From assembly GCA_018105865.1 (NCBI GenBank), contig JACLAT010000155.1, positions 21,001 through 85,000 of the forward strand: a stretch of DNA of 64,000 nt, given 5' to 3'. This document shows, piece by piece, positions 22,351-64,000 of this stretch. The position numbers and the translations under genes were made by a program. The stretch comes from Metaphire vulgaris (taxonomy: Eukaryota > Annelida > Clitellata > Crassiclitellata > Megascolecidae). The notes under the pieces are model-generated. The model saw only the letters and a list, made by a program, of their open reading frames with translations, did not search any database and was not told the origin of the DNA. Numbering within the stretch: position 1 is the first letter of the stretch; every line of letters begins with the position of its first letter.

Positions 22351-22967
22351 TTAGACCCCCATAGGCGTCCTCAATAAATAACGTCGCGTAGGTGTTCTAT
22401 TTAATATTGTGACGAATTTATAAATAGCCGACGAACTGTTCGCTTTGGTCGCCGATGCATTGGCGACGCTAGCATGGGCAGCCTTGGTATTGAGAAAACG
22501 CCGGTTGTTAGGGCAGCGGTCGGTTTGAATTTGTAACGTGGGCCAGAAGAAGTGCATATGGCCGTTGTCGATGGTACATGACCATGGTTATTTGGACGCT
22601 GAGTTTGAGGAGGAGGAGGAGTAGCTGTGGGTTTGCTGGTGACATATACGGTGCAGTTGTTAGAGGAAGAAGATGGAGGAGGAGGGGGCGGAGGTGGAGT
22701 CGTCGGTTTACTGGGAGCAAAGGCAAAGCTGTTGTTACGCTGAGTGGGAGGAGCCGTCGGTCTAATGGGAGCAAAGGCAAAGCTGTTGTTACGCTGAGTG
22801 GGAGGACGATGAAGAAGAGAGGGGAGGTGGAGTAGGAGCCGTGGCTTTAATGTTTGCATATATAATGTTGTTGTGGGAAGGAGAAGGAGGAGGAGGAGGT
22901 GGAGTAGGTGTAGGAGTAGGTGGTGGCTGACGGCGCAATGACAGACGTCCTCTTTGGCTGGGCGTTT
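22351..22967 (-). CDS. rep: Rep-fusion gene copy 1, exon 6 (proline-rich C-terminus)
   Basis: Equivalent to 37,483-38,099, with the acceptor TTTTTGTAG immediately upstream. This copy has one extra G near 22,810 and one missing G near 22,495. The frame is thus shifted between those points and restored at the end. Both changes are in short homopolymers, so sequencing error is possible. Confidence 0.7.
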
Positions 22968-23116
22968 CTACAAAAAGAGTGAAAGACACTGGATTGACTA
23001 GACATGTAGACAAAAAATTGCAACTGCGAGCTGCTATTAAGTATAAAAAGCATCGTATTGCAAAGGAACTAGTAACTCGTAAAGATGTATAAGTATGGTA
23101 TAATAGCTGGACATAC

Positions 23117-23230
23117 GCGAAGCCAAAGGTGGAGCATCGAAAAGATTGTTGTTCTGATTGTAGTTCTGTTCTTTCTCGACCGATATATCCTGACGGCGCA
23201 GCGACAGACGTCCTCGCTGGGTGGGCGTTT
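23117..23230 (-). CDS. rep: Rep-fusion gene copy 1, exon 5 cassette
   Basis: 114-nt symmetrical phase-1 exon, matching 37,219-37,332 in length, splice sites and basic motif. Confidence 0.75.
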
Positions 23231-23449
23231 CTACACAAAAATGGGAAAGAAAGACAGCGGAGTTAATAGAAAATTAAAAACGCGGACAATACGCAACAAA
23301 TTAAATAGCTGCGAGCCGTTAAGTCCATGTATCCAGTAACTCCTAAATAACATCTAGTGTTACTCGTTAGATCACCCATATGCTGCGAACTAGTAACGTA
23401 TAAAGGAAATTATCATATATCTGTCGAACAAGTTCTTAGGAGCACATAC

Positions 23450-23566
23450 GCGAAGCAAATATGGGCGCCTCGACGACAATGCAGTGCGACTCCTCTTCTT
23501 CTTGATCTTTGGCGGCTGGTATCTTCTGACGGCGCAGCGACAGACGTCCTCGCTGGGTGGGCGTTT
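23450..23566 (-). CDS. rep: Rep-fusion gene copy 1, exon 4 cassette
   Basis: 117-nt symmetrical phase-1 exon, matching 36,883-36,999. Confidence 0.75.
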
Positions 23567-23735
23567 CTATAGAAACAGACTCAAAGCTGTAACAGTTTAT
23601 TTACCAGTTGTCAAGAAAAGGATGGCAAACTAACGCGAAGTACAGAAAACAGGAAACAACTCCTTAATCAAGTAAGGACTCTTTGAATTCGTACAAGAGA
23701 CAGTTCTTTTCTGGACTCAGTAAACGTCTGCTTAC

Positions 23736-23926
23736 GTGAACCGAATGCTGGCGTCTCCACGACAGTCGTTATATCTTGCGCCGTCCAATTCTTGTTGCCT
23801 TTGTCCGCTTGCGATGAGCCGAATATGTCGTCGTCTTCGTCGTCGCCGTCTTGTGGAGGCACAGTGTTGTTGGTTTTTGCATCGACAGACGCCGCCTCCT
23901 TTTAAATCGGTTGTACCTACACGGTT
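23736..23926 (-). CDS. rep: Rep-fusion gene copy 1, exon 3 cassette (1-nt deletion)
   Basis: Matches 36,522-36,713 but is 191 nt instead of 192, because a T run near 23,873 has five instead of six bases. Taken literally this shifts the frame and kills copy 1. It is in a homopolymer, so it could also be an assembly error. Confidence 0.7.
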
Positions 23927-24023
23927 CTGTATACGCGAAAAAAAAGTATCAGTCACGCCTATGAGCGAAAGCATATATCTTAACAGTCTACTTGCAACCG
24001 GTCCTAAAGACTTGTTTGATAAG

Positions 24024-24072
24024 CCTAACCCTAACCCTAACCCTAACCCTAACCCGAACCCTGACCCTTACC
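24024..24072 (-). repeat. Short interstitial telomeric repeat in Rep intron 2, copy 1
   Basis: Five to six CCCTAA units on the plus strand decay into CCCGAACCCTGACCC. They lie inside the intron between exons 3 and 2, next to a TA microsatellite at about 24,094-24,114. Confidence 0.85.
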
Positions 24073-24169
24073 ACCGCTAAAGTTCATATACTAGATATAT
24101 ATATATATATATATAGGTGACGAATTCTTTTTCCTTATATATACATAAATATAGCGCTACAATACTTAC

Positions 24170-24914
24170 GTGACGCACAGGGCGGTGTATCAGGTACGAA
24201 GTGCTGCGCTGGTTGCGTGATCTGAGGCATCCTCGGTTGCTGCTGCTGCTGCTGCTGCGTCGGCGGCGGCGGCGGCGGCGTCGGCTGCGGCTGCGGCGGC
24301 GTGGGAGCAGCTTCCGGTTGGGTTGCCTGTCCGTCGTCGTGGGCGCCTTGCATAGGGGTTGCCTGTCCGTTGTCGTCGTCGACACCACCTCCCATACGTT
24401 GTGGCACATTCCAGTGCACGTCCTTGAATAGTTCCCGGTGTTGGATGACGAAAATGGCGAATCTACGAGTTATGGCCTCGCATAAGAAGACGTCGTTGGG
24501 CCATAACTCGTTGATTTGGTAATTTGAAGTAACGATTACGCCGAGCGGTCTTATATATAGCGTTCCGCCTTTTGTTTCTGCATAAAATGCTGTCTCATCG
24601 GTCCATATCTTGATGCAGTGAGCAAGGTATTTTGCGGCGGTATGATCTACGTCTTCTATAATTACTATAGATTGGTTTGTGTAGCCATCCCACCATTTTG
24701 TCAGTGCTGATTTCATGTAGTACGTGATATTCCTAGTCCGGCAAAACTCCTTGGCGAAATGGCTCTTGCCCACGCCCGGTACGCCCGTCAACCAAAGGCC
24801 GACGGTCGAGCCCGGTCGCAGGTCGGCGACGGGTTCGGCGAGCACAGCATCTTGTCTGATCCGCTTTATGTTGTGATAGCAGCGGATCAGTATGCTGGGC
24901 TCTATGTCGTCTAT
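24170..24914 (-). CDS. rep: Rep-fusion gene copy 1, exon 2 (SF3 helicase)
   Basis: Same reading as 35,538-36,282, including Walker A, Walker B and motif C, and open throughout. The proline/glutamine tract differs from the other copies by one extra Pro codon and one fewer Gln codon, so the length is unchanged. Confidence 0.9.
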
Positions 24915-25172
24915 CTGTTAGTGTTAAAGGCATGAAACAAGAAATTACTGCAAAGATAAGCAAGACGACGGTGTGCTTTTCAATATTAAAAGCAAATTAC
25001 TGCAAACCACTTTTTATAAGCGAATAGTAGCTAATAATCTGTGATTGCCCAAATGCAAGGAAACCAAAAAACCACTATCTGTAATAGCTAAACTGCCATA
25101 AATTATAAGCTCGAAATACTCGGCTGACCATCGACCAGTTGTTAGTGGCGTATTACAGGCAAATGAATTTAC

Positions 25173-25547
25173 CTGTCCCGAGCGTGCTTTCCGTAGAGCG
25201 TCGACGTAGCGCTCTTTGTTGGCGCGCCCGCCGCTGGCGCCCTGTTCGTCTGGCACTTCGCCGAATTCCACGAAGTCGCCGTCCTTCGCACAGTAATTCC
25301 TGTTGTCGGCGACGCTGCCTCTGGCCCTTTCGAAATGCGCGAAGGCGTCTACCTTTTCCTTGATCTTGGCAACTGTAGCTCTATTTTTCAAACACAGAAA
25401 GCCTTGCAGATGGCGTCGTCCCGTGTCTGGGCAGGTCTCTCTGCCGTAGCATAGGTATGCCATTAGAACTTCGTTGAATACGATCGGCTCATCGACTCTG
25501 AAGCTGGTGAAGCACCAGCGCTTCGAACCACCGCCCGCTCCTGGCAT
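25173..25547 (-). CDS. rep: Rep-fusion gene copy 1, exon 1 (HUH endonuclease)
   Basis: The translation is identical to copy 2 exon 1 (34,905-35,279). The chosen start is the ATG at 25547, and an in-frame ATG 28 codons upstream (25631) would add a basic leader. The donor is CAG/GTAAAT, phase 0. Confidence 0.9.
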
Positions 25548-27573: not shown

Positions 27574-27648
27574 GGTTAGGGTTAGGTTAGGGTTAGGGTT
27601 AGGGTTAGGGTTAGGGTTAGGTTAGGTTAGGGTTAGGGTTGGGTTAGG
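27574..27648 (+). repeat. Telomeric TTAGGG array at the end of module C1
   Basis: About twelve TTAGGG/TTAGG units start directly at the broken LINE frame. The G-rich strand points away from module C, as it would at a chromosome end. Confidence 0.9.
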
Positions 27649-27876
27649 CAACAAAAAAACGAGTGCACGGGCAACTACCACTGCCCCCGCATCCTACCCC
27701 CAGACAATAAGTTATTATATGATCTTATTGATTTTAGTATTATGTAACCATTGTATAAACAGCTCTAGAATAGGCTTAAATTAAGCTCAAAAATTAGTAT
27801 TATTAGATGTAAAAACCTGTTTTATTGTAGAATAATTCGAACTGTGATGTCAGATTCGAAGAGCGGCTTCACGTAA

Positions 27877-27917
27877 GCTCGACGCGCGTTTCGGGAGGTC
27901 CTCTCCTCTTCAGGAGC
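27877..27917 (-). ncRNA. Hammerhead ribozyme, satellite unit 1
   Basis: Same core as 32,527-32,568. Stem II is one pair shorter because one base of the first strand is missing. Confidence 0.7.
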
Positions 27918-28520
27918 AAGAGTAGGCTTCCAGCGGGCAGACCAACAGACAAATGACCAAACATCAGCAGCAGCAAGAAGAACCGGGAAAGACCAGAGGC
28001 TGGACAGGTACAATTCCAAAGGCAAGGGGGAACTGCCCGTATCTAAGGCGGGTCAGCTCGGGGAGAGGCATGCGGCCTATGCTCCGCCGGCATGCGGCCG
28101 GCGAGGAGGTGCCCAAAGGAGAAAGTCAACCGCCGCCGCGGCCCGGTCCCAGTCCCCACCACTGCCGGGGTAGTCAACAGAAAATTCAAGTCTTAGCCAA
28201 GGGGCGTAGCCAGATCCATTGTAGATTAACATACAGAAACTGACGAAGGGCAGAAACGAGGGGAACAAGCGATATGCGCTGGCTAGGTTAGGCAACAAAA
28301 ACGAGTGCACGGGCAACTACCACTGCCCCCGCATCCTACCCCCCAGACAATAAGTTATTATATGATCTTATTGATTTTAGTATTATGTAACCATTGTATA
28401 AACAGCTCTAGAATAGGCTTAAATTAAGCTCAAAAATTAGTATTATTAGATGTAAAAAACCTGTTTTATTGTAGAATAATTCGAACTGTGATGTCAGATT
28501 CGAAGAGCGGCTTCACGTAA

Positions 28521-28562
28521 GCTCGACGCGCGTTTCGGGAGGTCCTCTCCCTCTTCAGGAGC
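28521..28562 (-). ncRNA. Hammerhead ribozyme, satellite unit 2
   Basis: Complete core with a 5-bp stem II, identical to 32,527-32,568. Confidence 0.8.
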
Positions 28563-29173
28563 AAGAGTAGGCTTCCAGCGGGCAGACCAACAGACAAATG
28601 ACCAAACATCAGCAGCAGCAAGAAGAACCGGGAAAGACCAGAGGCTGGACAGGTACAATTCCAAAGGCAAGGGGGGAACTGCCCGTATCTAAGGCGGGTC
28701 AGCTCGGGGAGAGGCATGCGGCCTATGCTCCGCCGGCATGCGGCCGGGGAGGGAGGTGCCCAAAGGAGAAAGTCAACCGCCGCCGCGGCCCGGTCCCAGT
28801 CCCCCCACCACTGCCGGGGTAGTCAACAGAAAATTCAAGTCTTAGCCAAGGGGCGTAGCCAGATCCATTGTAGATTAACATACAGAAACTGACGAAGGGC
28901 AGAAACGAGGGGAACAAGCGATATGCGCTGGCTAGGTTAGGCAACAAAAAAACGAGTGCACGGGCAACTACCACTGCCCCCCCGCATCCTACCCCCCAGA
29001 CAATAAGTTATTATATGATCTTATTGATTTTAGTATTATGTAACCATTGTATAAACAGCTCTAGAATAGGCTTAAATTAAGCTCAAAAATTAGTATTATT
29101 AGATGTAAAAAACCTGTTTTATTGTAGAATAATTCGAACTGTGATGTCAGATTCGAAGAGCGGCTTCACGTAA

Positions 29174-29215
29174 GCTCGACGCGCGTTTCGGGAGGTCCTC
29201 TCCCTCTTCAGGAGC
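29174..29215 (-). ncRNA. Hammerhead ribozyme, satellite unit 3
   Basis: Complete core with a 5-bp stem II. Confidence 0.8.
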
Positions 29216-29821
29216 AAGAGTAGGCTTCCAGCGGGCAGACCAACAGACAAATGACCAAACATCAGCAGCAGCAAGAAGAACCGGGAAAGACCAGAGGCTG
29301 GACAGGTACAATTCCAAAGGCAAGGGGGGAACTGCCCGTATCTAAGGCGGGTCAGCTCGGGGAGAGGCATGCGGCCTATGCTCCGCCGGCATGCGGCCGG
29401 CGAGGGAGGTGCCCAAAGGAGAAAGTCAACCGCCGCCGCGGCCCGGTCCCAGTCCCCCCACCACTGCCGGGGTAGTCAACAGAAAATTCAAGTCTTAGCC
29501 AAGGGGCGTAGCCAGATCCATTGTAGATTAACATACAGAAACTGACGAAGGGCAGAAACGAGGGGAACAAGCGATATGCGCTGGCTAGGTTAGGCAACAA
29601 AAAAACGAGTGCACGGGCAACTACCACTGCCCCCGCATCCTACCCCAGACAATAAGTTATTATATGATCTTATTGATTTTAGTATTATGTAACCATTGTA
29701 TAAACAGCTCTAGAATAGGCTTAAATTAAGCTCAAAAATTAGTATTATTAGATGTAAAAACCTGTTTTATTGTAGAATAATTCGAACTGTGATGTCAGAT
29801 TCGAAGAGCGGCTTCACGTAA

Positions 29822-29862
29822 GCTCGACGCGCGTTTCGGGAGGTCCTCTCCTCTTCAGGAGC
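29822..29862 (-). ncRNA. Hammerhead ribozyme, satellite unit 4
   Basis: Core present, with stem II one base shorter on its 5' strand. Confidence 0.7.
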
Positions 29863-30468
29863 AAAGTAGGCTTCCAGCGGGCAGACCAACAGACAAATGA
29901 CCAAACATCAGCAGCAGCAAGAAGAACCTGGGAAAGACCAGAGGCTGGACAGGTACAATTCCAAAGGCAAGGGGGAACTGCCCGTATCTAAGGCGGGTCA
30001 GCTCGGGGAGAGGCATGCGGCCTATGCTCCGCCGGCATGCGGCCGGGGAGGAGGTGCCCAAAGGAGAAAGTCAACCGCCGCCGCGGCCCGGTCCCAGTCC
30101 CCACCACTGCCGGGGTAGTCAACAGAAAATTCAAGTCTTAGCCAAGGGGCGTAGCCAGATCCATTGTAGATTAACATACAGAAACTGACGAAGGGCAGAA
30201 ACGAGGGGAACAAGCGATATGCGCTGGCTAGGTTAGGCAACAAAAAACGAGTGCACGGGCAACTACCACTGCCCCCCCGCATCCTACCCCCCAGACAATA
30301 AGTTATTATATGATCTTATTGATTTTAGTATTATGTAACCATTGTATAAACAGCTCTATAATAGGCTTAAATTAAGCTCAAAAATTAGCATTATTAGATG
30401 TAAAAAACCTGTTTTATTGTAGAATAATTCGAACTGTGATGTCAGATTCGAAGAGCGGCTTCACGTAA

Positions 30469-30509
30469 GCTCGACGCGCGTTTCGGGAGGTCCTCTCCTC
30501 TTCAGGAGC
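30469..30509 (-). ncRNA. Hammerhead ribozyme, satellite unit 5
   Basis: Core present, with stem II one base shorter on its 5' strand. Confidence 0.7.
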
Positions 30510-31112
30510 AAGAGTAGGCTTCCAGCGGGCAGACCAACAGACAAATGACCAAACATCAGCAGCAGCAAGAAGAACGGGAAAGACCAGAGGCTGGACAGGT
30601 ACAATTCCAAAGGCAAGGGGAACTGCCCGTATCTAAGGCGGGTCAGCTCGGGGAGAGGCATGCGGCCTATGCTCCGCCGGCATGCGGCCGGGGAGGAGGT
30701 GCCCAAAGGAGAAAGTCAACCGCCGCCGCGGCCCGGTCCCAGTCCCCACCACTGCCGGGGTAGTCAACAGAAAATTCAAGTCTTAGCCAAGGGGCGTAGC
30801 CAGATCCATTGTAGATTAACATACAGAAACTGACGAAGGGCAGAAACGAGGGGAACAAGCGATATGCGCTGGCTAGGTTAGGCAACAAAAAAACGAGTGC
30901 ACGGGCAACTACCACTGCCCCCGCATCCTACCCCCCAGACAATAAGTTATTATATGATCTTATTGATTTTAGTATTATGTAACCATTGTATAAACAGCTC
31001 TAGAATAGGCTTAAATTAAGCTCAAAAATTAGTATTATTAGATGTAAAAAACCTGTTTTATTGTAGAATAATTCGAACTGTGATGTCAGATTCGAAGAGC
31101 GGCTTCACGTAA

Positions 31113-31154
31113 GCTCGACGCGCGTTTCGGGAGGTCCTCTCCCTCTTCAGGAGC
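31113..31154 (-). ncRNA. Hammerhead ribozyme, satellite unit 6
   Basis: Complete core with a 5-bp stem II. Confidence 0.8.
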
Positions 31155-31761
31155 AAGAGTAGGCTTCCAGCGGGCAGACCAACAGACAAATGACCAAACA
31201 TCAGCAGCAGCAAGAAGAACCGGGAAAGACCAGAGGCTGGACAGGTACAATTCCAAAGGCAAGGGGGGAACTGCCCGTATCTAAGGCGGGTCAGCTCGGG
31301 GAGAGGCATGCGGCCTATGCTCCGCCGGCATGCGGCCGGGGAGGGAGGTGCCCAAAGGAGAAAGTCAACCGCCGCCGCGGCCCGGTCCCAGTCCCCACCA
31401 CTGCCGGGGTAGTCAACAGAAAATTCAAGTCTTAGCCAAGGGGCGTAGCCAGATCCATTGTAGATTAACATACAGAAACTGACGAAGGGCAGAAACGAGG
31501 GGAACAAGCGATATGCGCTGGCTAGGTTAGGCAACAAAAAAACGAGTGCACGGGCAACTACCACTGCCCCCGCATCCTACCCCCCAGACAATAAGTTATT
31601 ATATGATCTTATTGATTTTAGTATTATGTAACCATTGTATAAACAGCTCTAGAATAGGCTTAAATTAAGCTCAAAAATTAGTATTATTAGATGTAAAAAA
31701 CCTGTTTTATTGTAGAATAATTCGAACTGTGATGTCAGATTCGAAGAGCGGCTTCACGTAA

Positions 31762-31803
31762 GCTCGACGCGCGTTTCGGGAGGTCCTCTCCCTCTTCAGG
31801 AGC
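31762..31803 (-). ncRNA. Hammerhead ribozyme, satellite unit 7
   Basis: Complete core with a 5-bp stem II. Confidence 0.8.
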
Positions 31804-32068
31804 AAGAGTAGGCTTCCAGCGGACAGACCAACAGACAAATGACCAAACATCAGCAGCAGCAAGAAGAACCGGGAAAGACCAGAGGCTGGACAGGTACAAT
31901 TCCAAAGGCAAGGGGGGAACTGCCCGTATCTAAGGCGGGTCAGCTCGGGGAGAGGCATGCGGCCTATGCTCCGCCGGCATGCGGCCGGGGAGGGAGGTGC
32001 CCAAAGGAGAAAGTCAACCGCCGCCGCGGCCCGGTCCCAGTCCCCCCACCACTGCCGGGGTAGTCAAC

Positions 32069-32800
32069 AAGATCATATAATAACTTATTGTCTGGGGGGT
32101 AGGATGCGGGGGGGCAGTGGTAGTTGCCCGTGCACTCGTTTTTTTGTTGCCTAACCTAGCCAGCGCATATCGCTTGTTCCCCTCGTTTCTGCCCTTCGTC
32201 AGTTTCTGTATGTTAATCTACAATGGATCTGGCTACGCCCCTTGGCTAAGACTTGAATTTTCTGTTGACTACCCCGGCAGTGGTGGGGACTGGGACCGGG
32301 CCGCGGCGGCGGTTGACTTTCTCCTTTGGGCACCTCCCTTCCCGGCCGCATGCCGGCGGAGCATAGGCCGCATGCCTCTCCCCGAGCTGACCCGCCTTAG
32401 ATACGGGCAGTTCCCCCCTTGCCTTTGGAATTGTACCTGTCCAGCCTCTGGTCTTTCCCGGTTCTTCTTGCTGCTGCTGATGTTTGGTCATTTGTCTGTT
32501 GGTCTGCCCGCTGGAAGCCTACTCTTGCTCCTGAAGAGGGAGAGGACCTCCCGAAACGCGCGTCGAGCTTACGTGAAGCCGCTCTTCGAATCTGACATCA
32601 CAGTTCGAATTATTCTACAATAAAACAGGTTTTTTACATCTAATAATACTAATTTTTGAGCTTAATTTAAGCCTATTCTAGAGCTGTTTATACAATGGTT
32701 ACATAATACTAAAATCAATAAGATCATATAATAACTTATTGTCTGGGGGGTAGGATGCGGGGGGGCAGTGGTAGTTGCCCGTGCACTCGTTTTTTTGTTG
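32069..32800 (-). repeat. Inverted satellite, 1.1 units
   Basis: After 32,068 the sequence switches to the inverse of the satellite. There are 81 bases of one unit, then a full unit up to the CCCTAA array. The switch joins about position 539 of a forward unit to about position 81 of an inverted unit with at most a base or two of shared sequence. Confidence 0.95.
32527..32568 (+). ncRNA. Hammerhead ribozyme, inverted unit (reference copy)
   Basis: All conserved hammerhead elements are present in order: stem I strand GCTC (32527-32530), core CTGAAGA (32531-32537), stem II GGGAG/CTCCC closed by AGGAC (32538-32552), core GAAA (32553-32556), the A15.1-to-U16.1 segment ACGCGCGT, cleavage after C (32564, GUC), and stem I strand GAGC (32565-32568). 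Stem III is minimal and self-complementary. That is the form known in Penelope-like retroelements and animal retrozymes, which act as dimers. AATAAA follows at 32619-32624. Confidence 0.85.
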
Positions 32801-32880
32801 CCTAACCCTAACCCTAACCCTAACCCTAACCCTAACCCTAACCCTAACCCTAACCCTAACCCTAACCCTAACCCTAACCC
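32801..32880 (-). repeat. Telomeric CCCTAA array at the end of module C2
   Basis: About thirteen near-perfect CCCTAA units. The orientation is opposite to 27,574-27,648, so the two arrays face each other across the satellite. Confidence 0.95.
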
Positions 32881-33533: not shown

Positions 33534-34185
33534 GCAGGCTTACACACTCCAGTGAACTCGGTTAGACAAGAAAAGGAGTGAAAACGAGAGTTCACGATTC
33601 TGCAACCGTAATAATCCAGTCGAGAAACGTAGCGAGAATAATCCAGTCGAGAAACGTAGCGATAAGAATAAAATAAAATCAGGCGACGGCCATATTGAAC
33701 AACGGTAATTTTCAAATTTATAACGGTGTTAATGTTGATATCGTTCCGTTACAACTTAATATCACCGTGGCCACTCGAATTTTAATCAAACTAGCGCTAG
33801 TTTCGAATTTATTGTCGAACGATACGAATTTTGATATATCGCAAGAAGCATAACGAGAAAACAGTCTGACAAAAATAACATTTAATCACGCGATCGAAGT
33901 TTTTGGCTGCCACACTCGGCGCCACCTACCGATCAAAATCTATATATATATATGAGAAATTGAAAGGTCAACTGCACAGCCGACTATAGAGTTAATTTCA
34001 TATATACCTATGTATATGAAAGCGAAAGGAGAACTGCACAGCTTTGAGAAATGGCGCGTAACGTTGATTAAATCGAGCGGTAAACGGCACAGCTTCGAGT
34101 CATGTACGTATTCAGCAAGACACAAGCGACGAGTAAAAGTTACGAAGAGATGACTTAGAAGAATAAAGTATGCTGCGCAGTTTAC

Positions 34186-34329
34186 CTTCATTCGGACGAA
34201 ACCGATAAAAGCTCTCCCTCGCGTAACTGTGTAGCAAAGGAAGTACATCTTAGAGGCGTCGTAACGAATCGCTTCTTCTTCTTTGCAATGCCACGCCTGC
34301 ATCTGCCAATTAACAGACCTATTCGCCAT
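34186..34329 (-). CDS. Possible degenerate Rep-like first exon, copy 2
   Basis: Identical 48-codon exon with GTAAAC donor, divergent from the Rep gene at 34,905. Confidence 0.35.
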
Positions 34330-34904
34330 TTCGCAAGGAGCAAGAAACGCAGACCGTTCGAAAGCAGTAGCATACGACGAATAACTGCGGAAGGAAACAC
34401 GTCACGTAGACTGCCCGGCCGGCTCTATCGTTCCGTTGACCACGTGACCGAAAACAATTTAATCTCTAGCGCCTGATCACTGGCTTTCAAATCGATGACC
34501 GACAGGCCGACAGCACCTGAATAGAGGGTAGGGCAAAGAAAACAGCGACGGCCAGCAGAAGCGTTGCACAATCTTTCCCTCCACCCCCAAACGGTTGCAT
34601 AAGCCGCGCTCATGATGCGCGATAAACACATGCCGATGAGCTAATGAATCGACAGGCGACCGACTGATGATAAGTTAACGAACGACGATCAACGGTATTG
34701 TCCAGAGTATGATGACCCCTTGGGCTATTCGCAGCCGCGGATGCGGCTTGCAGGCCCCCCCCCCCGCCAGCAGAACATAGTCCGAAACGATTTAGTGCGT
34801 AGTCCTTTTAGACGACGACATTGCGAGAGAAGAGACGTTCCCTGAGACAGAAGAAGAAGATTTTCGGCATTTTAAAGCGTCTAGTACAGTCAGTAAGATA
34901 TACA

Positions 34905-35279
34905 ATGCCAGGAGCGGGCGGTGGTTCGAAGCGCTGGTGCTTCACCAGCTTCAGAGTCGATGAGCCGATCGTATTCAACGAAGTTCTAATGGCATACCTA
35001 TGCTACGGCAGAGAGACCTGCCCAGACACGGGACGACGCCATCTGCAAGGCTTTCTGTGTTTGAAAAATAGAGCTACAGTTGCCAAGATCAAGGAAAAGG
35101 TAGACGCCTTCGCGCATTTCGAAAGGGCCAGAGGCAGCGTCGCCGACAACAGGAATTACTGTGCGAAGGACGGCGACTTCGTGGAATTCGGCGAAGTGCC
35201 AGACGAACAGGGCGCCAGCGGCGGGCGCGCCAACAAAGAGCGCTACGTCGACGCTCTACGGAAAGCACGCTCGGGACAG
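34905..35279 (+). CDS. rep: Rep-fusion gene copy 2, exon 1 (HUH endonuclease)
   Basis: 125 codons in phase 0, ending at a CAG/GTAAAT donor. It encodes the nicking domain of a CRESS-DNA (circovirus-like) Rep, which cuts and rejoins single-stranded DNA at a rolling-circle origin. Motif I is WCFTSF (residues 11-16), motif II HLQGF (46-50) supplies metal-binding residues, and motif III YCAK (85-88) holds the catalytic tyrosine. The start at 34905 puts motif I about 11 residues in, as in known Reps. An in-frame ATG at 34821 would add 28 basic residues. Intron 1 (35,280-35,537) is 258 nt. Spliceosomal introns are foreign to these viruses, so this is a resident nuclear gene. Confidence 0.92.
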
Positions 35280-35537
35280 GTAAATTCATTTGCCTGTAAT
35301 ACGCCACTAACAACTGGTCGATGGTCAGCCGAGTATTTCGAGCTTATAATTTATGGCAGTTTAGCTATTACAGATAGTGGTTTTTTGGTTTCCTTGCATT
35401 TGGGCAATCACAGATTATTAGCTACTATTCGCTTATAAAAAGTGGTTTGCAGTAATTTGCTTTTAATATTGAAAAGCACACCGTCGTCTTGCTTATCTTT
35501 GCAGTAATTTCTTGTTTCATGCCTTTAACACTAACAG

Positions 35538-36282
35538 ATAGACGACATAGAGCCCAGCATACTGATCCGCTGCTATCACAACATAAAGCGGATCAGACAA
35601 GATGCTGTGCTCGCCGAACCCGTCGCCGACCTGCGACCGGGCTCGACCGTCGGCCTTTGGTTGACGGGCGTACCGGGCGTGGGCAAGAGCCATTTCGCCA
35701 AGGAGTTTTGCCGGACTAGGAATATCACGTACTACATGAAATCAGCACTGACAAAATGGTGGGATGGCTACACAAACCAATCTATAGTAATTATAGAAGA
35801 CGTAGATCATACCGCCGCAAAATACCTTGCTCACTGCATCAAGATATGGACCGATGAGACAGCATTTTATGCAGAAACAAAAGGCGGAACGCTATATATA
35901 AGACCGCTCGGCGTAATCGTTACTTCAAATTACCAAATCAACGAGTTATGGCCCAACGACGTCTTCTTATGCGAGGCCATAACTCGTAGATTCGCCATTT
36001 TCGTCATCCAACACCGGGAACTATTCAAGGACGTGCACTGGAATGTGCCACAACGTATGGGAGGTGGTGTCGACGACGACAACGGACAGGCAAACCCTAT
36101 GCAAGGCGCCCACGACGACGGACAGGCAACCCAACCGGAAGCTGCTCCCACGCCGCCGCAGCCGCAGCCGACGCCGCCGCCGCCGCCGACGCAGCAGCAG
36201 CAGCAGCAGCAGCAACCGAGGATGCCTCAGATCACGCAACCAGCGCAGCACTTCGTACCTGATACACCGCCCTGTGCGTCAC
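35538..36282 (+). CDS. rep: Rep-fusion gene copy 2, exon 2 (SF3 helicase)
   Basis: 745 nt from acceptor CTAACAG to donor TCAC/GTAAGT (phase 1). It encodes the superfamily 3 helicase of the Rep. Walker A is GVPGVGKS (about residues 169-176 of the mature order). KWWDGY is diagnostic of circovirus-like Reps. Walker B is IIEDVD (210-215), motif C is VIVTSN (251-256), and an ITRRF arginine-finger-like stretch lies near 273-277. All catalytic residues are present. A low-complexity Pro/Gln tract follows and the exon ends DTPPCAS, the first of a series of similar exon ends. The open frame beyond 36,282 reads into the intron. Confidence 0.92.
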
Positions 36283-36378
36283 GTAAGTATTGTAGCGCTA
36301 TATTTATGTATATATAAGGAAAAAGAATTCGTCACCTATATATATATATATATATATCTAGTATATGAACTTTAGCGG

Positions 36379-36427
36379 TGGTAAGGGTCAGGGTTCGGGT
36401 TAGGTTAGGGTTAGGTTAGGGTTAGGC
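36379..36427 (+). repeat. Short interstitial telomeric repeat in Rep intron 2, copy 2
   Basis: GGGTTAGG-type repeats inside the 239-nt intron (36,283-36,521), shorter than in copies 1 and 3, beside a TA run at about 36,338-36,356. Confidence 0.85.
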
Positions 36428-36521
36428 TTATCAAACAAGTCTTTAGGACCGGTTGCAAGTAGACTGTTAAGATATATGCTTTCGCTCATAGGCGTGACTG
36501 ATACTTTTTTCGCGTATACAG

Positions 36522-36713
36522 AACCGTGTAGGTACAACCGATTTAAAAGGAGGCGGCGTCTGTCGATGCAAAAAACCAACAACACTGTGCCTCCACAAGA
36601 CGGCGACGACGAAGACGACGACATATTCGGCTCATCGCAAGCGGACAAAGGCAACAAGAATTGGACGGCGCAAGATATAACGACTGTCGTGGAGACGCCA
36701 GCATTCGGTTCAC
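36522..36713 (+). CDS. rep: Rep-fusion gene copy 2, exon 3 cassette
   Basis: 192 nt, symmetrical phase 1 (acceptor TATACAG, donor CAC/GTAAGC). It opens with a basic segment containing FKRRRRLSMQ, passes into an acidic DGDDEDDDIFG stretch and ends ETPAFGS. The basic start and the TPxxxS-like end match exons 4-6, so this is the diverged first member of a repeated exon family. A nuclear-localisation or phosphorylation role for RRRRLS is plausible but inferred. Confidence 0.8.
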
Positions 36714-36882
36714 GTAAGCAGACGTTTACTGAGTCCAGAAAAGAACTGTCTCTTGTACGAATTCAAAGAGTCCTTACTTGATTAAGGAGTTGTTTCCTGT
36801 TTTCTGTACTTCGCGTTAGTTTGCCATCCTTTTCTTGACAACTGGTAAATAAACTGTTACAGCTTTGAGTCTGTTTCTATAG

Positions 36883-36999
36883 AAACGCCCACCCAGCGAG
36901 GACGTCTGTCGCTGCGCCGTCAGAAGATACCAGCCGCCAAAGATCAAGAAGAAGAGGAGTCGCACTGCATTGTCGTCGAGGCGCCCATATTTGCTTCGC
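36883..36999 (+). CDS. rep: Rep-fusion gene copy 2, exon 4 cassette
   Basis: 117 nt, symmetrical phase 1, from acceptor TTTCTATAG to donor TTCGC/GTATGT. It begins TPTQRGRLSLRRQ and ends EAPIFAS, with an acidic DQEEEES middle. The first 40 nt are almost identical to the start of exon 5. Skipping or repeating this exon would leave the frame intact. Confidence 0.82.
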
Positions 37000-37218
37000 G
37001 TATGTGCTCCTAAGAACTTGTTCGACAGATATATGATAATTTCCTTTATACGTTACTAGTTCGCAGCATATGGGTGATCTAACGAGTAACACTAGATGTT
37101 ATTTAGGAGTTACTGGATACATGGACTTAACGGCTCGCAGCTATTTAATTTGTTGCGTATTGTCCGCGTTTTTAATTTTCTATTAACTCCGCTGTCTTTC
37201 TTTCCCATTTTTGTGTAG

Positions 37219-37332
37219 AAACGCCCACCCAGCGAGGACGTCTGTCGCTGCGCCGTCAGGATATATCGGTCGAGAAAGAACAGAACTACAATCAGAACAA
37301 CAATCTTTTCGATGCTCCACCTTTGGCTTCGC
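37219..37332 (+). CDS. rep: Rep-fusion gene copy 2, exon 5 cassette
   Basis: 114 nt, symmetrical phase 1, from acceptor TTTGTGTAG to donor TTCGC/GTATGT. It begins TPTQRGRLSLRRQ and ends DAPPLAS, with an Asn/Gln-rich middle. Tandem duplicate of exon 4 that has diverged in the middle. Confidence 0.82.
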
Positions 37333-37482
37333 GTATGTCCAGCTATTATACCATACTTATACATCTTTACGAGTTACTAGTTCCTTTGCAATACGATGCT
37401 TTTTTATACTTAATAGCAGCTCGCAGTTGCAATTTTTTGTCTACATGTCTAGTCAATCCAGTGTCTTTCACTCTTTTTGTAG

Positions 37483-38099
37483 AAACGCCCAGCCAAAGAG
37501 GACGTCTGTCATTGCGCCGTCAGCCACCACCTACTCCTACACCTACTCCACCTCCTCCTCCTCCTTCTCCTTCCCACAACAACATTATATATGCAAACAT
37601 TAAAGCCACGGCTCCTACTCCACCTCCCTCTCTTCTTCATCGTCCTCCCACTCAGCGTAACAACAGCTTTGCCTTTGCTCCCATTAGACCGACGGCTCCT
37701 CCCACTCAGCGTAACAACAGCTTTGCCTTTGCTCCCAGTAAACCGACGACTCCACCTCCGCCCCCTCCTCCTCCATCTTCTTCCTCTAACAACTGCACCG
37801 TATATGTCACCAGCAAACCCACAGCTACTCCTCCTCCTCCTCAAACTCAGCGTCCAAATAACCATGGTCATGTACCATCGACAACGGCCATATGCACTTC
37901 TTCTGGCCCACGTTACAAATTCAAACCGACCGCTGCCCTAACAACCGGCGTTTTCTCCAATACCAAGGCTGCCCATGCTAGCGTCGCCAATGCATCGGCG
38001 ACCAAAGCGAACAGTTCGTCGGCTATTTATAAATTCGTCACAATATTAAATAGAACACCTACGCGACGTTATTTATTGAGGACGCCTATGGGGGTCTAA
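37483..38099 (+). CDS. rep: Rep-fusion gene copy 2, exon 6 (proline-rich C-terminus)
   Basis: Last exon, from acceptor CTTTTTGTAG to a TAA stop. It begins TPSQRGRLSLRRQ like exons 4 and 5. About 100 residues follow of proline runs and repeated TQRNNSFAFAP blocks (two copies), then a less biased Ala/Thr/Lys tail of about 60 residues. With exons 1-5 the total is 2,160 nt, that is 719 residues. Known CRESS Reps are about 280-400 residues, so nearly half of this protein is extension. The long upstream part of the open frame is intron. Confidence 0.82.
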
Positions 38100-61057: not shown

Positions 61058-61674
61058 TTAGACCCCCATAGGCGTCCTCAATAAATAACGTCGCGTAGGT
61101 GTTCTATTTAATATTGTGACGAATTTATAAATAGCCGACGAACTGTTCGCTTTGGTCGCCGATGCATTGGCGACGCTAGCATGGGCAGCCTTGGTATTGG
61201 AGAAAACGCCGGTTGTTAGGGCAGCGGTCGGTTTGAATTTGTAACGTGGGCCAGAAGAAGTGCATATGGCCGTTGTCGATGGTACATGACCATGGTTATT
61301 TGGACGCTGAGTTTGAGGAGGAGGAGGAGTAGCTGTGGGTTTGCTGGTGACATATACGGTGCAGTTGTTAGAGGAAGAAGATGGAGGAGGAGGGGGCGGA
61401 GGTGGAGTCGTCGGTTTACTGGGAGCAAAGGCAAAGCTGTTGTTACGCTGAGTGGGAGGAGCCGTCGGTCTAATGGGAGCAAAGGCAAAGCTGTTGTTAC
61501 GCTGAGTGGGAGGACGATGAAGAAGAGAGGGAGGTGGAGTAGGAGCCGTGGCTTTAATGTTTGCATATATAATGTTGTTGTGGGAAGGAGAAGGAGGAGG
61601 AGGAGGTGGAGTAGGTGTAGGAGTAGGTGGTGGCTGACGGCGCAATGACAGACGTCCTCTTTGGCTGGGCGTTT
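61058..61674 (-). CDS. rep: Rep-fusion gene copy 3, exon 6
   Basis: 617 nt with the same frame and stop as copy 2 exon 6. Uninterrupted. Confidence 0.82.
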
Positions 61675-61823
61675 CTACAAAAAGAGTGAAAGACACTGGA
61701 TTGACTAGACATGTAGACAAAAAATTGCAACTGCGAGCTGCTATTAAGTATAAAAAGCATCGTATTGCAAAGGAACTAGTAACTCGTAAAGATGTATAAG
61801 TATGGTATAATAGCTGGACATAC

Positions 61824-61937
61824 GCGAAGCCAAAGGTGGAGCATCGAAAAGATTGTTGTTCTGATTGTAGTTCTGTTCTTTCTCGACCGATATATCCTGA
61901 CGGCGCAGCGACAGACGTCCTCGCTGGGTGGGCGTTT
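61824..61937 (-). CDS. rep: Rep-fusion gene copy 3, exon 5 cassette
   Basis: 114 nt, identical in structure to copy 2 exon 5. Confidence 0.82.
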
Positions 61938-62157
61938 CTACACAAAAATGGGAAAGAAAGACAGCGGAGTTAATAGAAAATTAAAAACGCGGACAATACG
62001 CAACAAATTAAATAGCTGCGAGCCGTTAAGTCCATGTATCCAGTAACTCCTAAATAACATCTAGTGTTACTCGTTAGATCACCCATATGCTGCGAACTAG
62101 TAACGTATAAAGGAAATTATCATATATCTGTCGAACAAGTTCTTAGGGAGCACATAC

Positions 62158-62274
62158 GCGAAGCAAATATGGGCGCCTCGACGACAATGCAGTGCGACTC
62201 CTCTTCTTCTTGATCTTTGGCGGCTGGTATCTTCTGACGGCGCAGCGACAGACGTCCTCGCTGGGTGGGCGTTT
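62158..62274 (-). CDS. rep: Rep-fusion gene copy 3, exon 4 cassette
   Basis: 117 nt, identical in structure to copy 2 exon 4. Confidence 0.82.
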
Positions 62275-62443
62275 CTATAGAAACAGACTCAAAGCTGTAA
62301 CAGTTTATTTACCAGTTGTCAAGAAAAGGATGGCAAACTAACGCGAAGTACAGAAAACAGGAAACAACTCCTTAATCAAGTAAGGACTCTTTGAATTCGT
62401 ACAAGAGACAGTTCTTTTCTGGACTCAGTAAACGTCTGCTTAC

Positions 62444-62635
62444 GTGAACCGAATGCTGGCGTCTCCACGACAGTCGTTATATCTTGCGCCGTCCAATTCT
62501 TGTTGCCTTTGTCCGCTTGCGATGAGCCGAATATGTCGTCGTCTTCGTCGTCGCCGTCTTGTGGAGGCACAGTGTTGTTGGTTTTTTGCATCGACAGACG
62601 CCGCCTCCTTTTAAATCGGTTGTACCTACACGGTT
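62444..62635 (-). CDS. rep: Rep-fusion gene copy 3, exon 3 cassette
   Basis: 192 nt. The T run that is short in copy 1 has six bases here, keeping the frame. Confidence 0.82.
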
Positions 62636-62732
62636 CTGTATACGCGAAAAAAAAGTATCAGTCACGCCTATGAGCGAAAGCATATATCTTAACAGTCTAC
62701 TTGCAACCGGTCCTAAAGACTTGTTTGATAAG

Positions 62733-62780
62733 CCTAACCCTAACCCTAACCCTAACCCTAACCCGAACCCTGACCCTTAC
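62733..62780 (-). repeat. Short interstitial telomeric repeat in Rep intron 2, copy 3
   Basis: About five CCCTAA units decaying to CCCGAACCCTGACCC, as in copy 1. Confidence 0.85.
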
Positions 62781-62878
62781 CACCGCTAAAGTTCATATAC
62801 TAGATATATATATATATATATATAGGTGACGAATTCTTTTTCCTTATATATACATAAATATAGCGCTACAATACTTAC

Positions 62879-63623
62879 GTGACGCACAGGGCGGTGTATC
62901 AGGTACGAAGTGCTGCGCTGGTTGCGTGATCTGAGGCATCCTCGGTTGCTGCTGCTGCTGCTGCTGCTGCGTCGGCGGCGGCGGCGGCGTCGGCTGCGGC
63001 TGCGGCGGCGTGGGAGCAGCTTCCGGTTGGGTTGCCTGTCCGTCGTCGTGGGCGCCTTGCATAGGGGTTGCCTGTCCGTTGTCGTCGTCGACACCACCTC
63101 CCATACGTTGTGGCACATTCCAGTGCACGTCCTTGAATAGTTCCCGGTGTTGGATGACGAAAATGGCGAATCTACGAGTTATGGCCTCGCATAAGAAGAC
63201 GTCGTTGGGCCATAACTCGTTGATTTGGTAATTTGAAGTAACGATTACGCCGAGCGGTCTTATATATAGCGTTCCGCCTTTTGTTTCTGCATAAAATGCT
63301 GTCTCATCGGTCCATATCTTGATGCAGTGAGCAAGGTATTTTGCGGCGGTATGATCTACGTCTTCTATAATTACTATAGATTGGTTTGTGTAGCCATCCC
63401 ACCATTTTGTCAGTGCTGATTTCATGTAGTACGTGATATTCCTAGTCCGGCAAAACTCCTTGGCGAAATGGCTCTTGCCCACGCCCGGTACGCCCGTCAA
63501 CCAAAGGCCGACGGTCGAGCCCGGTCGCAGGTCGGCGACGGGTTCGGCGAGCACAGCATCTTGTCTGATCCGCTTTATGTTGTGATAGCAGCGGATCAGT
63601 ATGCTGGGCTCTATGTCGTCTAT
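62879..63623 (-). CDS. rep: Rep-fusion gene copy 3, exon 2 (SF3 helicase)
   Basis: 745 nt, open throughout, with the same helicase motifs and Pro/Gln tract as copy 2. Confidence 0.92.
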
Positions 63624-63881
63624 CTGTTAGTGTTAAAGGCATGAAACAAGAAATTACTGCAAAGATAAGCAAGACGACGGTGTGCTTTTCAATATTAAAA
63701 GCAAATTACTGCAAACCACTTTTTATAAGCGAATAGTAGCTAATAATCTGTGATTGCCCAAATGCAAGGAAACCAAAAAACCACTATCTGTAATAGCTAA
63801 ACTGCCATAAATTATAAGCTCGAAATACTCGGCTGACCATCGACCAGTTGTTAGTGGCGTATTACAGGCAAATGAATTTAC

Positions 63882-64000
63882 CTGTCCCGAGCGTGCTTTC
63901 CGTAGAGCGTCGACGTAGCGCTCTTTGTTGGCGCGCCCGCCGCTGGCGCCCTGTTCGTCTGGCACTTCGCCGAATTCCACGAAGTCGCCGTCCTTCGCAC
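63882..64000 (-). CDS. rep: Rep-fusion gene copy 3, exon 1 (partial, cut by window end)
   Basis: The last ~39 codons of the nicking-domain exon before the CAG/GTAAAT donor. The HUH motifs lie beyond the window. Confidence 0.85.

What the first reader, a model, noticed from the sequence alone, without database searches (positions are those of the whole stretch)
34905..38099. Intron-bearing CRESS-DNA Rep fused to a long host-style C-terminal extension
The sequence shows an HUH nickase exon (WCFTSF, HLQGF, YCAK) spliced in phase to an SF3 helicase exon (GVPGVGKS, KWWDGY, IIEDVD, VIVTSN), then four more exons with consensus splice sites, all in frame. Known circovirus-like Reps are intronless and about 280-400 residues, while this reads as 719. 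All catalytic residues remain in the open copy. Several introns plus an intact frame argue for an old, functional, resident gene and not a recent viral scar. I know of no described Rep with this architecture, but I could not search.
Basis: partly seen in the sequence, partly recalled or inferred. Interest (0 to 1): 0.95.

Follow-up and report, generated by a model that had tools for sequence, protein, structure and literature searches.

The report
Spliced virus-derived replication gene near telomeres
A eukaryotic genome carries a gene that came from a tiny circular DNA virus and appears to have gained introns and a long extra tail, while its nuclease and helicase parts still look selected, as if it does or recently did something in its new home.

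Summary
In detail: six exons (34905-38099) with five GT-AG introns keep one frame of 719 codons plus stop: an HUH nickase exon, an SF3 helicase exon and four tail exons. The first intron has independent support: an intron-free paralogue (C25) is collinear across it, and paralogue C18 carries a diverged intron there. C155 and C18 share short stretches of upstream non-coding DNA, found elsewhere without an adjoining Rep, so one integration is likely. Since they parted, amino-acid sites changed far less than synonymous sites (dN/dS 0.08 helicase, 0.15-0.18 nickase), while the intron drifted like synonymous sites.

The tail is weaker: no known domain, one clear relative with dN/dS near 0.5, last 27 codons in a shared repeat. 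The window's three copies are 99.5% alike, not independent evidence. 'Circovirus-like Reps are intronless' is wrong: cyclovirus Reps have introns.

Best reading: a resident CRESS-derived Rep family, enriched near contig ends, whose C155 member gained introns after endogenization. Whether host gene or selfish mobile gene is unresolved; no transcript could be tested. New variant of a known kind.

The parts
34905..35279 (+). exon 1: HUH (rolling-circle) endonuclease domain; begins with ATG
   Evidence: Viral_Rep E 2.4e-19; circovirus Rep structures; collinear with C25 and C72 copies
35280..35537 (+). intron 1, 258 nt, GTAAAT..ACAG, phase 0; absent in C25, present and diverged in C18 (176 of 238 aligned bases alike, 35 gap columns)
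35538..36282 (+). exon 2: SF3 helicase domain (35538-36059) and Pro/Gln-rich start of the tail (36060-36282)
   Evidence: RNA_helicase E 1.6e-10; 8xms/7lar; NG86 dN/dS 0.08 against C18 over 158 codons
36283..36521 (+). intron 2, 239 nt, with a TTAGGG-like repeat (36380-36430) also found at other loci
36522..36713 (+). exon 3, 192 nt, phase 1-1
36714..36882 (+). intron 3, 169 nt
36883..36999 (+). exon 4, 117 nt; first 41 nt identical to exon 5
37000..37218 (+). intron 4, 219 nt, holding a 50-nt piece of a 150/170-bp satellite (37066-37115)
37219..37332 (+). exon 5, 114 nt; starts like exon 4
37333..37482 (+). intron 5, 150 nt; C13 has a related stretch before its exon-6 homologue
37483..38099 (+). 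exon 6, 617 nt with stop; Pro-rich; homologous to C13 up to about 38024
   Evidence: dN 0.31, dS 0.57 over 115 codons
38021..39000 (+). repeat shared at 98-99% with C14:16972724 and C14:16973907, where searches list no Rep; supplies the last 27 codons, stop and 3' flank
34012..34875 (+). 5' flank, stops in all six frames over 34063-34875; related stretches at C24 (75-88%), C32 (79-85%, a RepA copy lies 10 kb away) and, short and diverged, upstream of the C18 Rep (72%)
22351..25547 (-). copy 1 of the gene; parts of exons 3 and 6 out of frame
61058..64000 (-). copy 3; exons 2-6 open, exon 1 cut by the contig end
7994..28374 (.). 20.4-kb arm, inverted copy of 52441-32064 at 99.5%
27642..32807 (.). 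tandem units of about 650 bp and TTAGGG-like tracts at the centre of the palindrome

Best explanation
It is a resident, intron-bearing gene of an endogenous CRESS-virus Rep family. Shown: a circovirus-like HUH plus SF3 Rep; a family of two clades in this genome; an intron shared only by C155 and C18 among the copies that could be checked; both domains conserved at amino-acid level between these two. Inferred: a viral Rep was captured, gained a spliceosomal intron, then acquired tail exons by local exon duplication and by reading into repeats, and was copied with subtelomeric blocks. The likely product is a spliced nuclear protein that nicks DNA with its tyrosine, unwinds it with its helicase, and uses a disordered tail for contacts. 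What was selected is probably this nick-and-unwind activity, either helping its own family to be copied by a rolling-circle route or recruited by the host. I lean slightly to the selfish option because the family is multicopy with many broken members.
For: Pfam and PDB matches of both exon frames. Intron-free collinear C25 and intron-bearing C18. dN/dS against C18: helicase 0.08 (33.0 synonymous, 12.0 non-synonymous changes, 158 codons), nickase pieces 0.15 and 0.18 (69 and 29 codons). The intron differs at 26% of aligned bases, like synonymous sites (pS 0.21-0.31). C155 and C18 share two upstream non-coding stretches of about 90 bp at 72%, belonging to a flank that also occurs at C24 and C32. 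C155+C18 are sisters (SH-aLRT 95) in the helicase tree; C18 is not in the nickase tree. RepA clade, open stretches of 6 of 10 rows: 14 of 15 pairs dN/dS 0.04-0.18, several with saturated dS. Of 16 nickase loci on large contigs 3 lie within 100 kb of an end (p about 0.001 assuming a 15-Mb mean contig). C40's copy is 4 kb from a TTAGGG-rich contig end.
Against: No transcript evidence. C18 is broken, and of the other loci whose frames I listed only C16 and C182 run unbroken, so constraint may belong to an ancestor that was still mobile or viral. Of 21 amino-acid differences between C155 and C18 in the two domains 7 fall on C155, 9 on C18, 5 are unclear: C155 is not clearly more conserved than its broken sister. 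The shared flank is short and diverged. Exons 3-5 lack a relative outside C155 and frames that short are often open by chance. Tail dN/dS is about 0.5. C155 is an 85-kb contig of inverted repeats, so local assembly error is possible.
Confidence: 0.55

Rival explanations
1. Two integrations of an exogenous CRESS virus lineage whose Rep was already spliced, as in cycloviruses; the low dN/dS is viral history and C155 is the younger fossil.
For: Cyclovirus Reps carry introns (PMC3684831, passages). Uninterrupted Reps from roughly 2-kb metagenome contigs (P0005, P0007, P0009) lie near both clades, and the nickase tree joins RepA with two of them, not with RepB. A spliced viral Rep would not appear as one frame in the protein database, so its absence there says little.
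Against: C155 and C18 share short pieces of a non-coding flank that also stands at C24 and C32 without an adjoining Rep. The nearest relatives found are uninterrupted frames on contigs of 1.2-2.5 kb, shorter than this 3.2-kb gene. No origin nonamer near the gene (weak); capsid family without hits, but its control was silent too.
Confidence: 0.18
2. A sub-case of the best explanation: a host-recruited gene (for example interference with incoming CRESS viruses, or handling of chromosome ends) under continuing selection.
For: Motifs intact, splice structure, low dN/dS; precedents: an intact expressed circovirus Rep in an ant (PMC6069186, passages) and EVE-host fusion proteins (PMC12300724, start of abstract in a listing).
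Against: No orthologue or transcript could be examined; C155 is no more conserved than its broken sister by amino-acid count; the family is scattered and many listed copies are broken.
Confidence: 0.25
3. A fossil without function: only exons 1 and 2 are real, the tail exons are a chance chain of open stretches and the constraint predates endogenization.
For: Exons 3-5 are short and often open by chance; the tail end comes from a repeat; one of three copies is partly out of frame in exons 3 and 6.
Against: The exon 6 frame stays open in 2 of 1000 shuffles and its C13 relative keeps a 168-codon frame behind an acceptor; all five introns keep the frame.
Confidence: 0.2

Closest known systems
Circovirus/cyclovirus Rep (Cressdnaviricota)
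   Same: HUH nickase followed by SF3 helicase, sequence matches to solved circovirus Reps; cyclovirus Reps can carry one intron (PMC3684831, passages)
   Different: 719 codons in six exons, chromosomal, long Pro-rich tail, no capsid or origin found nearby
Endogenous CRESS Reps (Liu 2011 PMC3198968 and Dennis 2018 PMC6069186, passages; Dennis 2019 PMC6372831, listing only)
   Same: chromosomal Rep-derived sequences, often multicopy, some intact and expressed
   Different: several introns, an intron shared between paralogues, a tail of duplicated exons, placement among subtelomeric repeats
Geminivirus-like Rep transposon of Tuber (Liu 2011, passages)
   Same: Rep family amplified inside a genome
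   Different: that one has 37-bp terminal inverted repeats and transposase frames; none were identified here, where the inverted arms are 20 kb
Avipoxvirus captured Reps (PMC10193959, passages)
   Same: captured CRESS Reps under purifying selection (dN/dS 0.17-0.33)
   Different: in a poxvirus, often with inactivated catalytic motifs; here motifs are intact and the gene is split by introns
Helitrons
   Same: eukaryotic HUH nickase joined to a helicase (recalled)
   Different: Helitron helicase is of another superfamily (recalled); Pfam shows Viral_Rep and RNA_helicase here

Membership tests
CRESS-virus Rep (circovirus/cyclovirus-like) | HUH endonuclease domain with motifs I-III | tested here: met
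CRESS-virus Rep (circovirus/cyclovirus-like) | SF3 helicase downstream in the same gene | tested here: met
   same frame by arithmetic
CRESS-virus Rep (circovirus/cyclovirus-like) | part of a small circular genome with capsid gene and nonanucleotide origin | tested here: inconclusive
   no nonamer core between 33616 and 41062; capsid family 0 hits but the control rang nowhere
   719 codons
Endogenous viral element | flanked by DNA of the host genome | tested here: met
   33550-33933 is 100% identical to C57 and repeated on many contigs
Endogenous viral element | groups with viral Reps in a tree | tested here: met
   (quick trees; references are two named viruses and metagenome contigs; long branches flagged)
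Co-opted host gene | coding sequence conserved after endogenization | tested here: inconclusive
   dN/dS 0.08-0.18 against intron-sharing C18, but changes are not fewer on C155 than on broken C18
Co-opted host gene | orthologue at the same locus in related species | not testable with these tools
   no relatives of G000 are held
Co-opted host gene | spliced transcript and protein | not testable with these tools
   no RNA-seq at hand; the protein search takes only lengths up to 1.75 times the query (tool description)
Mobile element (Rep transposon) | many copies with defined ends or target-site duplications | tested here: inconclusive
   33 matching stretches of the exon 1 frame at E<=0.001; element ends were not searched for systematically
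Helitron | Helitron-type Rep plus its own helicase class | tested here: not met
   Pfam scan of the exon 1, exon 2 and exon 5-6 frames

The most novel reading that the evidence does not exclude
The RepA and RepB families are a chromosome-end-associated, capsid-free lineage of rolling-circle nickase-helicases that amplifies itself and its subtelomeric surroundings, with the spliced C155 member as a living source gene: a CRESS-derived mobile gene class that has adopted introns and a eukaryotic tail.
Probability: 0.15. Interest if true: 0.85.

Novelty: new variant of a known kind. Interest (0 to 1): 0.55.

Why it matters
If expressed, it would be a CRESS Rep that became a multi-exon eukaryotic gene with both enzymes intact. 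Paralogues with and without the first intron make intron gain in a captured viral gene open to dating, and the placement near chromosome ends offers a testable link between rolling-circle enzymes and subtelomeric amplification.

Tried and rejected
Led nowhere. Viral contig scans with profiles of both domains: 0 relatives confirmed of 55 and of 27 pattern stretches. Host identification: COX1 gave one short match, rRNA searches failed twice, the reverse-transcriptase search gave no organism names in the 120 rows listed of 7532 hits. The PF02443 capsid search was uninformative, its control being silent.

Considered and rejected. Contamination: the contig shares repeats at up to 100% identity with other contigs. 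Three copies as proof of selection: arms differ mostly by single-base length differences (22 mismatches, 81 gap bases over 20,420 columns). C25 as a processed copy of the C155 gene: its exon 1 differs at dS 1.16 and it groups with another RepB branch. Tail from a host gene: no support (C13 shows only the last exon in the 10 kb read). Weak 26-36% Pro-rich matches of exon 6 to RepA loci are not taken as homology. Short Tyr- and PTAP-like motifs in the tail were seen but not tested. The end-proximity count takes the 16 clusters on large contigs; lengths of C1 and C15 were not looked up (C1 has a match at 44.7 Mb; C15 judged interior from the size order of the contigs). A first count used the 14 stronger clusters (p 0.0008).

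Full report
What is there. The window is bases 21001-85000 of an 85-kb contig (C155) in a 728-Mb assembly of 246 contigs with no relatives held. The exon 1 frame is a CRESS Rep nickase domain and the exon 2 frame an SF3 helicase by Pfam and by solved Reps. Exons 1, 2 and 6 are open beyond chance (16, 0 and 2 of 1000 shuffles); exons 3, 4 and 5 are not on their own (115, 356, 350 of 1000). Their support is the splice sites, the shared phase 1 of introns 2-5, and the starts of exons 4, 5 and 6: the first 41 nt are identical in exons 4 and 5 and alike at 36 of 41 in exon 6 (read).

The contig. The gene lies in a 20.4-kb arm that is repeated inverted and then partly direct at 99.5%; differences are mostly length differences (9-22 mismatches against 45-81 gap bases per comparison). 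So three copies exist in the window, one cut by the contig end and one partly out of frame in exons 3 and 6. They are too alike to test selection and may in part reflect assembly.

The family. The exon 1 frame finds 33 matching stretches at E<=0.001 in the genome and the SF3 family 22 (not all of these need be Reps). Trees of the two domains, built apart, give two clades: RepB (C155, C18, C10B, C16b, C25, C72, a second C18 copy) and RepA (C16, C9, C32, C4, C11, C182, C40, C10A). The helicase tree makes them sisters (90); the nickase tree puts RepA with two metagenome Reps (80), so one or two captures are possible (quick trees, SH-aLRT only, many forks open, long branches flagged). Open stretches of six RepA rows give dN/dS 0.04-0.18 in 14 of 15 pairs, several at saturated dS; the fifteenth, C182 against C40, has only 7 changes (0.39). 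Many copies are broken: of the loci whose frames I listed, C16 and C182 run unbroken, C25, C40, C9 and C10 are split between frames, and C32 departs from the family after the helicase.

The intron. C25 is collinear with exons 1 and 2 with no gap at the junction (its helicase frame is broken further on), so the intron position is fixed by comparison. C18 has an intron at the same point with a GT donor of different following bases, the same acceptor bases, and 176 of 238 aligned intron bases alike. The second C18 copy runs through without it. C16b leaves only 46 nt between its exon-1 and exon-2 matches, too little for the intron. The RepA frames of C16 and C182 are uninterrupted. C10B and C72 lack one side and cannot tell. 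Gain in the C155+C18 lineage is the simplest reading. Against C18 the helicase piece has dS 0.40 and dN 0.033, the nickase pieces dS 0.25-0.29 and dN 0.042-0.045, while the intron drifted about as far as synonymous sites. Polarised on the other RepB copies, amino-acid changes split 7 on C155, 9 on C18, 5 unclear; this does not show that C155 alone stayed constrained.

Viral or resident. A spliced virus integrating twice could give the same pattern, and spliced cyclovirus Reps are on record (PMC3684831, passages). Against it, the 5' flank of C155, with stops in all six frames, recurs at C24 (75-88%) and C32 (79-85%) with no Rep adjoining (on C32 a RepA copy lies about 10 kb away), and two pieces of about 90 bp at 72% lie upstream of the C18 Rep. 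These shared pieces are short, and a spliced viral Rep would not show as one frame in the protein database, so the point is moderate. I favour one capture and later duplication, with the intron gained in the genome.

The tail. The exon 5-6 frame has no Pfam match. Exon 6 has one clear relative, at C13, behind an acceptor and with a 168-codon frame; dN/dS is about 0.54 over 115 codons. From 38021 the sequence is a repeat shared at 98-99% with two places on C14, so the last 27 codons are borrowed. Introns 2 and 4 hold TTAGGG-like and satellite pieces; the satellite lies within 92 kb of an end in the six large contigs whose lengths I looked up for this. Of 16 nickase loci on large contigs 3 are within 100 kb of an end (p about 0.001 under an assumed 15-Mb mean length), and four more are on contigs of 48-281 kb.

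Literature. Eight searches listed no multi-exon, long-tailed endogenous Rep in the rows I saw; the library lacks most subscription papers. Endogenous and expressed Reps are known (PMC3198968 and PMC6069186, passages), captured Reps under purifying selection too (PMC10193959, passages), circovirus-derived sequences amplified in carnivores (PMC11089739, passages), and EVE-host fusion proteins for parvoviruses (PMC12300724, start of the abstract in a listing).

Verdict. A new variant of a known kind: an endogenous CRESS Rep. Expression, chromosomal place and function are open.

Noticed in passing
G000:C10:2292874-2299949 (L001-L003, L005, L027, L028): Tandem array with a 1,856-1,867-bp period, neighbouring units 98-100% alike, holding RepA stretches and a RepB helicase fragment; the period is close to CRESS genome size. 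A database protein (P0004, 8 contigs, longest 1,851 bp) is identical to part of it.
   Followed up: partly
L049 3485-4882 (C16) and L050 5854-7629 (C182): Intron-free Rep frames of 465 and 591 codons (stop to stop) with long tails, Pro-rich in C182 and both acidic at the end; dN/dS 0.12 between them over 399 codons, with dS 1.59.
   Followed up: partly
L011 2455-3375 (C25): Unknown 307-codon open frame running off the locus, divergent to a Rep copy, no Pfam match.
   Followed up: partly
window 37066-37115; C27, C29, C30, C33, C34, C38, C40: A 150/170-bp satellite lies within 92 kb of a contig end on these seven large contigs (rows shown, capped list), and a 50-nt piece of it lies in intron 4.
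   Followed up: partly
window 27642-32807: About 650-bp tandem units at the centre of a 20-kb-armed palindrome; diverged pieces of the unit also lie upstream of the C18 Rep.
   Followed up: no
L047 7959-8696 (C18): A second, intron-free RepB copy, broken, 3.4 kb from the intron-bearing one.
   Followed up: partly
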